64,000 bases of DNA, taken from Plasmodium malariae. Its lineage: Eukaryota > Apicomplexa > Aconoidasida > Haemosporida > Plasmodiidae. Below the pieces are notes generated by a model, which saw only the letters and a list, made by a program, of their open reading frames with translations, had not been told where the DNA came from and made no database searches. Below are positions 53,581-56,500 of the stretch, piece by piece. The stretch is from positions 2,141,501 to 2,205,500 of the forward strand of contig NC_041788.1 of the NCBI RefSeq assembly GCF_900090045.1, read 5' to 3'. How positions within the stretch are numbered: position 1 is the stretch's first letter; each line of letters opens with the position of its first letter. Both the position numbers and the translations under genes were made by a program.

Positions 53581-56500
53581 TCAGAGAACTTGCAGCTCAT
53601 GGTTGCAAAATGGACACTGCTTGAAGAGGAAATATTTTTTAAAAAAGCAATTTTCGGTAGTGATAAAATAATAGCAAAAAGAACAAAAATATATGAAGTT
53701 TATACGAATTTGTAAATTGAATGTTAACGTAGAATTTTCTTCATCAAATATTTGTTTACTCATATTTGTTACAATACATATGGTCGGTAATGTAAGATAA
53801 TTTCTGTATATACAACAAAATGTTATCATACATTTATTAAATATATGCTTATTTTTACATATATAATAATTATTATATAAATTCGATATGCATACCTTTC
53901 CACAAAGAAGGCAGCTTACTTTAAAATATAATTTCTCAAATATATAATGATCAATATGTAACATACTCATTTTACTTTGTACTACTTCATACATTAAAAC
54001 AAGGTACTTTTCAAAAGTGATTGAATCAATTGTAATATTTTGTATATGTAATAATTCGCATGTTTGTTCTATATTTGTCTTATTCTTATCATCTTTTGCA
54101 TAAATTTCCCAGAAAAATTCAAATATTCTCGTTACTTCATTTGTTTTGTTTGCCTCCTTATTCATTTCCTCCTCTTTTCCTTCATTCATATCATTATTTA
54201 ATATATCCTCTGAACAAATAAAGATATAAAATAAGTAATAAAAATTAAGCAATATTAGTAAATAAAAGTAATCCATGTTATTTTTTCTTATATTATAATT
54301 TACGTTCACATACACATTGGTGTTATTTATTCGTAATGTATTTAACATAATGTAAAGTGTTTGACACAGATATATATTTACGTAAATATCTAGCGAAAAA
54401 CTAGTATTCCCCTTGTCATTATCTGTTCTTGTCTCATTTAATATTACATTAATATACTTCTTTATTTTGTGCACATAGTACAAGCATTTCTGTAATGGCA
54501 AGCAGTTGGTCGGAACAATATTGTCCTCTTTCACTACTTCTCTATTATTGCTACTGCTGCTGATGTTGTTATTACTATTGATGTTGTTATTACTGTTAAT
54601 GTTGCTATTACTATTGATGTTGTTACTGTTAATGTTGTTATTACTATTGATGCTATTATTGTTAATGTTGCTATTGCTATGGCCATTTCTAATGCTATTA
54701 CTACAACTGCTACTACCGCTATGCACATATTCTACACCAAGTACGTGTCCTTCACCTGCTTGGCTGTCCTCTTTGCATACACACCCAACACATTCGCTGT
54801 TACACGTTGCGTCCTGCTTCTCACCCTGCTGAGATAGCCTTACGTCATATTTCCCCCCATCGGATGGGTAAATATACCTAAATTTCTTCCTATACTTTCT
54901 TGTATTTTTATTAATTAAAAAAAAAGTAATGTGAGAACTGAAATTGTCATTACTAAGGCCATATGTCTTTAGACAAAAATTATACATGTAGATAAAAAAT
55001 GAACATGAAATAGTGTAATAATTTCTTATATTAATTAATTCATAATTTTTCAAAAAGGTATTTTTTGTGCATTTTTTTTTGGCTATAAAGGGAAACAATT
55101 CCTCTTTACACATTTCGTTGTATATTAAATGAAAAAAAGAAATACATGTATGAACATAATTATTTTGAAAATAATTTAAGACTTTGAGAAAGTAATAAAA
55201 ATTCATTTTAATTTTTTTTTTATTTTTTTTTTTTTTATTTTCCTCTAATTCAAAATTTTGTACACACTTGAAAATATTTTCATACGTAACGTAATCTTTT
55301 ATAATATTTAAAAAATTGAAATGACTATGTAGATCACTACAGCTCATTAAATTTTTGTCATTTATTTTATTCTCCTTTTCATTTATTCCAACGCCATTAT
55401 TTTTTTTATTTATTAAAAATAAGTCATAAAAGCCAAACAAAATATATTTATATTCAAAAAAAAATGTTTTATCCTCTCTTTGAGTAAATAAATTTACATG
55501 TACATTTTTTAATATATCATGAAAATATGCTTCACCATATTGTGATATGATCACATTTTCCCTCTCTTGGTTTTTTGTATTATTTAAATCGTCTTCTCGG
55601 AAGGTGGAATATTTGCCTTGGTTATTTATCTTATTAAACAATGAACTAATTCGTTTTAAAAGCTTGCTGATCGCTTTAACATAATTAATAATTAAACACT
55701 GATTGTTTATGGACATACTTATATTTTCATACTTCTTTTCTTGAAAATATATGTAAATTATATTCTTAAAAGAACTCTGTTCAATGTTGTATAATATTAA
55801 ATTATTGATTTTTTTTTTTCTTTTTTTTTTTTTTTGATTTTTTATTACTTCTTCATTAAAAGGAAAGAGTAAAGGTGTGAACAAAAGTTTTCTACAAATA
55901 TCTCCGTTTTTCATTTTTTCATTCTCACTTAAAAAAAATTCAAACTTTTGATTTTTAAATGAGCATATATAATTATACTTTTTGACACAGAAATTTTGAT
56001 AAAAGCATATGATTTCAAACAGTATGAAGCTTTTATTTCGGTTTTTATTTTCATTGTACTTTTCAAAATTGTATTTATTTATCACAATATTGCATATCAC
56101 ATTCTTAGCACTCTTGTAATTTGAGAAAAAGTCGTCTGAGTTGGAAATAATATCACTTGACATGGTATCCTTGGAGACGATTCCATCTGCTGCGTTTAAA
56201 TTTAAGGTGCTAACATTTGCGGTGTTTACATTTTCGACATTTACATACGCACCCGCTCCATTTGTACTACCTCCATCTGAGGAAGAATAACTGACTAACT
56301 CCATATCTACCCCTCCTTTTTTCCTCCTCAAAGTTATTACTAAGAAATCACATTTACACGTAATTATAACAGACGTGTATTTATATACGTTCTCGTGGGT
56401 ATATTTGTAACGGTCTTTTTTATTTTGATAAATGTCTGTACTTTGCATATCACTGAAAATATGATTGTTGTCCTTATTACAGTTATTCGGGTTATAATCT

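What the first reader, a model, noticed from the sequence alone, without database searches (positions are those of the whole stretch)
53581..53935. TFIIIC90-like C-terminal zinc module in an unassigned 1,657-aa protein
Seen: CLLC, CKNKHIFNKC, CSFC and a terminal CPFC within the last 110 residues. Known: GTF3C4 (TFIIIC90) ends with such a zinc domain after a beta-propeller. Inferred: this may be a TFIIIC subunit, a complex that is hard to find in apicomplexans.
Basis: partly seen in the sequence, partly recalled or inferred. Interest (0 to 1): 0.75.

Follow-up and report, generated by a model that had tools for sequence, protein, structure and literature searches.

The report
Probable malaria-parasite TFIIIC90 subunit
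An unnamed malaria-parasite gene ends in a conserved zinc-binding tail that looks like the tail of TFIIIC90, part of the machine that recognises tRNA genes; its relatives in other malaria parasites are listed as uncharacterised or simply as a zinc finger protein.

Summary
The zinc motifs are real, in a two-exon minus-strand gene (exons 58943-58399 and 58003-53581; 1,655 aa). All nine presumed ligands are invariant in the 18 Plasmodium sequences aligned. zf-TFIIIC (PF12660) is the best and most frequent Pfam match: 11 of 18 full-length proteins at E<=1, 8 of 8 C-terminal pieces, best 3.8e-4. Every match whose bits I saw stays below the cut-off of 23. A vertebrate TFIIIC90 tail profile scores 4 of 18 tails above all 3,000 shuffles; the window's own tail does not clear them. 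The C-x3-H-x4-C spacing is that of vertebrate GTF3C4. A beta-propeller could not be shown: models too poor, profile comparison blank there. The aside that TFIIIC is hard to find does not hold here: Tau95 is a clear hit, and a B-block domain above cut-off (though that family also rings in bacteria). Best reading: a very divergent TFIIIC90 of RNA polymerase III, about 65% likely; a new member of a known kind. In passing: the adjacent 4,211-aa ORF carries an Rrn7-type zinc ribbon.

The parts
58399..58943 (-). exon 1 (ATG at 58943), 181 codons plus two bases
   Evidence: sequence read, spliced and translated; matching N-terminal block in 16 of 17 orthologs by alignment columns (P0013 starts later)
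58004..58398 (-). intron, 395 nt, GTAAGAG...pyrimidine tract...CAG
   Evidence: junction pattern matched by 14 of 17 orthologs, 13 of them with the same F-x-x-V residues
53581..58003 (-). exon 2 with stop codon; strand-rich N-terminal part, helical middle with low-complexity inserts, zinc tail
   Evidence: order of secondary structure from a low-confidence model of an ortholog only
53605..53913 (-). C-terminal zinc module, zf-TFIIIC-like
   Evidence: Pfam PF12660, sub-threshold; vertebrate TFIIIC90 profile
53830..53913 (-). presumed zinc site 1: C-x2-C-x14-C-x3-H-x4-C (full-length residues 1546-1573)
   Evidence: invariant in the 18 sequences aligned; vertebrate TFIIIC90 tails have the same pattern with x13, 64 of 64 tested
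53605..53685 (-). presumed zinc site 2: CSFC ... CPFC (full-length residues 1622-1648)
   Evidence: cysteines invariant in the 18 sequences aligned; human GTF3C4 also ends in CPFC, other vertebrates in CxxC
38746..51381 (-). neighbouring gene, 4,211 aa, N-terminal Rrn7-type zinc ribbon; not part of the finding but possibly a Pol I factor
   Evidence: PF11781 28.2 bits, cut-off 27.1; only match in the six-frame search of the genome

Best explanation
The gene encodes a highly divergent TFIIIC90 (GTF3C4; yeast tau60 position), a scaffold subunit of the B-box-binding half (tau-B) of TFIIIC. Shown: a conserved C-terminal Cys/His module that resembles zf-TFIIIC, and, in the same genome, Tau95 and a B-block domain above cut-off. 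Inferred: the module binds two zinc ions and docks on the first winged-helix domain of the parasite's TFIIIC220, the strand-rich N-terminal part forms a propeller that pairs with a TFIIIC110-like propeller, and together they hold the winged helices that read the B box of tRNA genes so that TFIIIB and RNA polymerase III can be recruited.
For: zf-TFIIIC: 11 of 18 members at E<=1, best 0.003 (where the window row is exon 2 only); 14 of 18 at E<=10 (where the window row is a 270-aa piece); in both no other family matched more than one member. C-terminal pieces: 8 of 8 (8 of the 18 tails given), best 3.8e-4, window 0.0043. P. gaboni matches profile positions 11-94 of 98. 0 of 8 shuffled controls match it. 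Profile of 64 vertebrate TFIIIC90 tails: P. gaboni 18.4, P. falciparum 16.0, P. berghei 15.5, P. yoelii 15.4 bits, above the best of 1,500 full shuffles (11.2) and of 1,500 shuffles with C and H fixed (12.9). hhalign aligns the two tails with C..C, C..H..C and CMITF / CFLTY in register, and this is also its top match, though a weak one, full length against full length. Position at the extreme C-terminus as in human GTF3C4. Human TFIIIC90's zinc fingers bind TFIIIC220 WH1 (PMC11811891, passages), and a B-block ORF and Tau95 are present here.
Against: No match whose bits I saw reaches the curated Pfam cut-off (23; best seen 18.1 and 17.6); P. ovale full length gave none at E<=10. In the C-terminal scan other families also matched: Zn_ribbon_RlmA 3 of 8 (best 0.1), DUF7501, Cybc1_Eros and PMAIP1 2 of 8 each. 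The window's own tail scores only 7.5 bits with the vertebrate profile, inside the shuffle range; the median ortholog score is reached by 2 of 1,500 full shuffles and 13 of 1,500 C/H-fixed ones. hhalign probability is 12% (tail profiles) and 17% (human segment), 2 of 400 column shuffles reach the score, and full length against full length it is 0.6%, P 0.094. No match to TFIIIC_delta or any propeller family. PDB sequence searches with the family profiles did not return GTF3C4, and the fold search with a 61-pLDDT model did not list it in the rows shown. No relative outside Plasmodium was found (each scored only the roughly 7,990 candidates sharing most words). The B-block family also rings in 8 of 14 control prokaryotes, so the partner's identity is not proven. 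Nothing experimental.
Confidence: 0.65

Rival explanations
1. A propeller or solenoid protein of another complex with a C-terminal RING-like zinc domain, such as a HOPS/CORVET Vps protein or a SEA/GATOR2 subunit (WDR24, WDR59, Mio); the tail would hold that complex together.
For: These also end in Cys/His zinc modules (recalled). The weak rows of the fold search include U-box and RING chains (3lrq, 4qpl) at E 3.0-6.4.
Against: No RING, Vps or SEA-type zinc family is listed at E<=1 or E<=10 (filters drop most matches above about 0.1). The fold rows are not significant.
Confidence: 0.15
2. A Plasmodium-specific zinc protein in which the C-x3-H-x4-C spacing arose independently.
For: No relatives outside the genus found; sub-threshold matches; other zinc-ribbon families match some tails weakly (Zn_ribbon_RlmA 3 of 8); window tail inside the shuffle range of the vertebrate profile.
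Against: Four orthologs from two lineages (P. falciparum/gaboni and P. berghei/yoelii) clear all 3,000 shuffles; the best match covers nearly the whole Pfam profile and sits at the same terminal position.
Confidence: 0.16
3. Chance cysteine-rich tail, no zinc site.
For: Cysteine-rich composition makes CxxC common: three or more CxxC in 14,592 of 100,000 shuffles of the last 110 residues.
Against: All nine ligands invariant in the 18 sequences aligned; strict pattern in 1 of 200,000 shuffles.
Confidence: 0.04

Closest known systems
TFIIIC90 / GTF3C4 (human, PDB 8CLI chain B; tau60 position in yeast according to PMC11811891 and PMC12409998, passages)
   Same: C-terminal Cys/His module of two CxxC-type sites, identical C-x3-H-x4-C spacing, terminal CPFC in human (CxxC in other vertebrates)
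   Different: Twice the length (1,655 against 822 aa), low-complexity inserts, an extra CxxC and a longer stretch before the terminal CPFC, no TFIIIC_delta propeller or DUF5921 match by sequence (both present in vertebrate P0019)
zf-TFIIIC, Pfam PF12660
   Same: Best and most frequent Pfam match in the orthologs; P. gaboni covers 11-94 of 98 positions
   Different: Scores seen stay below the curated cut-off of 23 bits (best seen 18.1)
Four-subunit TFIIIC of trypanosomatids (PMC10781861, passages)
   Same: Parasitic protist with divergent TFIIIC; Tau95 and a Tau138 candidate detectable
   Different: That work found no candidate for Tau60 or Tau91; here a candidate for the TFIIIC90/tau60 position is proposed

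Membership tests
TFIIIC90 (GTF3C4) | C-terminal zf-TFIIIC zinc module | tested here: inconclusive
   Best and most frequent family, 8 of 8 pieces, best E 3.8e-4, but below the curated cut-off where bits were seen; 4 of 18 tails above all 3,000 shuffles with the vertebrate profile, the window's tail not
TFIIIC90 (GTF3C4) | N-terminal TFIIIC_delta / WD40 beta-propeller | tested here: inconclusive
   No Pfam match, no significant hhalign match in that part, no repeat in the self-comparison; ortholog model strand-rich over about residues 170-740 but at mean pLDDT 31
TFIIIC90 (GTF3C4) | Zinc module at the extreme C-terminus | tested here: met
   Module ends 7 residues before the C-terminus in 18 of 18 Plasmodium sequences, 5 in 64 of 64 vertebrate sequences kept (five with broken tails had been dropped)
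TFIIIC90 (GTF3C4) | Partner TFIIIC220 (B-block winged-helix subunit) present in the same organism | tested here: inconclusive
   PF04182 in a 1,739-aa ORF, 43-50 bits, cut-off 22, but the family also rings in 8 of 14 control prokaryotes, over cut-off in 4
TFIIIC90 (GTF3C4) | TFIIIC complex present in the organism (Tau95) | tested here: met
   PF09734 E 4.3e-28, 103 bits, cut-off 23.7; 0 of 14 control genomes rang
TFIIIC90 (GTF3C4) | Part of the TFIIIC complex at tRNA genes | not testable with these tools
   Needs pull-down or chromatin mapping
RING / U-box | RING family match or fold in the tail | tested here: inconclusive
   No RING Pfam family listed at E<=10 (filters drop most matches above about 0.1); fold rows 3lrq and 4qpl at E 3.0-6.4, not significant

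The most novel reading that the evidence does not exclude
Two adjacent genes described in print as of unknown function (P. falciparum PF3D7_1223500 and PF3D7_1223600, identified by synteny) encode dedicated initiation factors of RNA polymerase I (an Rrn7/TAF1B-like protein of 4,211 aa in this species) and RNA polymerase III (a TFIIIC90 twice the usual size), so that Plasmodium keeps a full B-box-reading tau-B module in highly inflated form.
Probability: 0.43. Interest if true: 0.58.

Novelty: new member of a known kind. Interest (0 to 1): 0.42.

Why it matters
In the papers I could search, how malaria parasites recruit RNA polymerase III to tRNA genes is not described in any title or abstract start that was listed, although the Pol III repressor Maf1 has been studied for its part in starvation survival (PMC5371417, passages). 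A named candidate for a TFIIIC scaffold subunit, in a genome with detectable Tau95, B-block, Brf1 and Bdp1-type genes, makes the complex testable by one pull-down. It also proposes functions for two genes beside gch1: copy-number work reports both as part of amplified segments (PMC7774857, PMC6950926, passages), and selection studies report the neighbour PF3D7_1223500 (PMC13377190, PMC5129638, passages).

Tried and rejected
Structure of a whole ortholog (P. cynomolgi, 1,166 aa, 18-row alignment): mean pLDDT 31.4, pTM 0.28, useless for fold claims. Structure of the C-terminal 270 residues of the window's protein: best of five models mean pLDDT 61.4, pTM 0.61, the other four 37.5-49.0; Foldseek gave 55 matches at E<=10, none at E<=0.001, GTF3C4 not among the 50 rows shown; the VIA second look aligned mostly helices 1-70. 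Both inconclusive.

Search for relatives outside Plasmodium: only the same 17 orthologs, with the exon-2 query and with a four-species profile in which the C-terminal part was placed first; each search scored only the 7,991 or 7,989 candidates that share most words, so this is not proof of absence.

Self-comparison of the N-terminal profile for propeller blades, 16 of 18 rows: no off-diagonal repeat of note. Full-length hhalign against vertebrate TFIIIC90: top match is the tail (P 0.094), nothing else of note.

Six-frame searches of the window's own genome with zf-TFIIIC, TFIIIC_delta and TFIIIC_sub6 found nothing, not even this gene for zf-TFIIIC, and no control genome rang, so they say nothing about absence. 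The tail itself found only its own place in the genome. NCBIfam: nothing meaningful.

Literature (PMC open-access library): TFIIIC with Plasmodium gave 17 papers, all listed. Of these I read passages of PMC5371417, PMC7016506 and PMC8092211, where TFIIIC stands only in the reference list; the other 14 I saw only as listings. No title or abstract start listed there describes TFIIIC of Plasmodium. The related searches (all hits listed; 15 of 54, 10 of 54 and 8 of 7,654 listed) showed none either. I cannot exclude papers outside this library or outside the listed part, or database annotation.

Full report
What is there. On the minus strand a two-exon gene runs from ATG 58943 to the stop at 53581, with one 395-nt intron (58398-58004). 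The spliced protein is 1,655 aa. Of 17 orthologs, 14 match the junction pattern and 13 of them carry the same residues across it. The window lies in a 33.6-Mb assembly of 62 contigs; the orthologs show it is a Plasmodium. Which species was not tested.

Observation. They form C-x2-C-x14-C-x3-H-x4-C followed by CSFC and CPFC; all nine ligands are invariant in the 18 Plasmodium sequences aligned. The strict pattern occurs in 1 of 200,000 shuffles. The 17 orthologs found are listed as of unknown function, hypothetical or uncharacterised; for 3 of 17 (P0010, P0012, P0016) the UniRef name, cut in the listing, begins 'Zinc fi' or 'Zinc finger protein'.

Family of the tail. In the Pfam scans of the 18 family members zf-TFIIIC is the only family matched by more than one: 11 of 18 at E<=1, 14 of 18 at E<=10. 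In the scan of C-terminal pieces (8 of the 18 tails given) it matches 8 of 8, best E 3.8e-4, but Zn_ribbon_RlmA also matches 3 (best 0.1) and three other families 2 each. The window's tail has 17.6 bits and P. gaboni full length 18.1, P. ovale full length none; the curated cut-off is 23. Shuffled versions: 0 of 8 hit it. A profile of 64 vertebrate TFIIIC90 tails scores the 18 Plasmodium tails at 1.8 to 18.4 bits. Four of 18 exceed the best of 3,000 shuffles; the window's own tail (7.5 bits) does not, and the median tail is reached by 2 and 13 of 1,500 shuffles of the two kinds. In hhalign the two tails align with zinc site 1 in register, P 0.0024, probability 12%; 2 of 400 column shuffles reach that score, and full length against full length the same match is top at P 0.094, probability 0.6%. 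The human segment came from PDB entry 8CLI chain B. The evidence points one way from several sides, but each piece is weak.

The rest of the protein. No propeller could be demonstrated. The model of an ortholog has mean pLDDT 31; its order of elements (strands from about 170 to 740, helices from about 746 to 1060, strand-rich tail) is what a TFIIIC90 would show, but at this confidence it is not evidence. Full-length profile comparison finds only the tail, and the C-terminal model gave no useful fold match.

Surroundings. Gene order is gyrase A, P4-type ATPase (two ORFs), a 532-aa ORF, the 4,211-aa Rrn7-ribbon protein, this gene, then VIT. Papers list PF3D7_1223500 and PF3D7_1223600 with the vacuolar iron transporter PF3D7_1223700 and gch1 (PMC6950926, PMC7774857, passages); so the P. 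falciparum ortholog is probably PF3D7_1223600, by synteny (inferred; the numbers for gyrase A and the ATPase are recalled).

The complex. The same genome holds Tau95 (E 4e-28), Brf1 and a Bdp1-type SANT domain, none of which rang in the 14 control genomes, and a B-block_TFIIIC domain in a 1,739-aa ORF, a family that rang in 8 of the 14 controls. TFIIIC as such is therefore not missing here. In human TFIIIC the TFIIIC90 zinc fingers bind WH1 of TFIIIC220 and are part of the scaffold that stabilises WH2 and WH4 (PMC11811891, passages). In the parasite's B-block protein the B-block match lies at residues 144-229, which leaves room for a WH1 in front (inferred). In trypanosomatids no Tau60 or Tau91 candidate was found (PMC10781861, passages).

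Verdict. A divergent TFIIIC90 is the best reading, about 0.65. Works like: a zinc-tailed scaffold of tau-B (inferred). Membership: terminal position and presence of the complex met, zinc family sub-threshold, partner and propeller inconclusive. It is a new member of a known kind; interest moderate.

Noticed in passing
38746-51381 (-): 4,211-aa ORF with an N-terminal zinc ribbon of the Rrn7/TAF1B type (PF11781, 28.2 bits, cut-off 27.1), the only match in the six-frame search of the genome (that small family also rang in 7 of 14 control prokaryotes, over cut-off in 0). A candidate RNA polymerase I initiation factor of extraordinary length. By synteny PF3D7_1223500, reported as of unknown function with selection signals near gch1 (PMC13377190, PMC5129638, passages).
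   Followed up: partly
L004 (G000 C3:167500-175500), ORF 1455-6674 (+): 1,739-aa ORF with B-block_TFIIIC (43.3 bits) at residues 144-229 and a sub-threshold DUF7646 match: candidate TFIIIC220 of the parasite.
   Followed up: partly
L005 (G000 C13:589000-592800), ORF 961-3006 (-): 681-aa ORF with Tau95 HTH domain (98.5 bits): candidate TFIIIC63.
   Followed up: partly
window exon 2, about residues 215-275 of its translation: Long asparagine/aspartate/alanine repeat (NNAD units) in this species; alignment columns 601-660 hold 60 residues here and 0 to 21 in the other 17 sequences.
   Followed up: no
37220-38818 (-): 532-aa ORF that overlaps the 3' end of the 4,211-aa ORF in another frame, without a Pfam match.
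   Followed up: no
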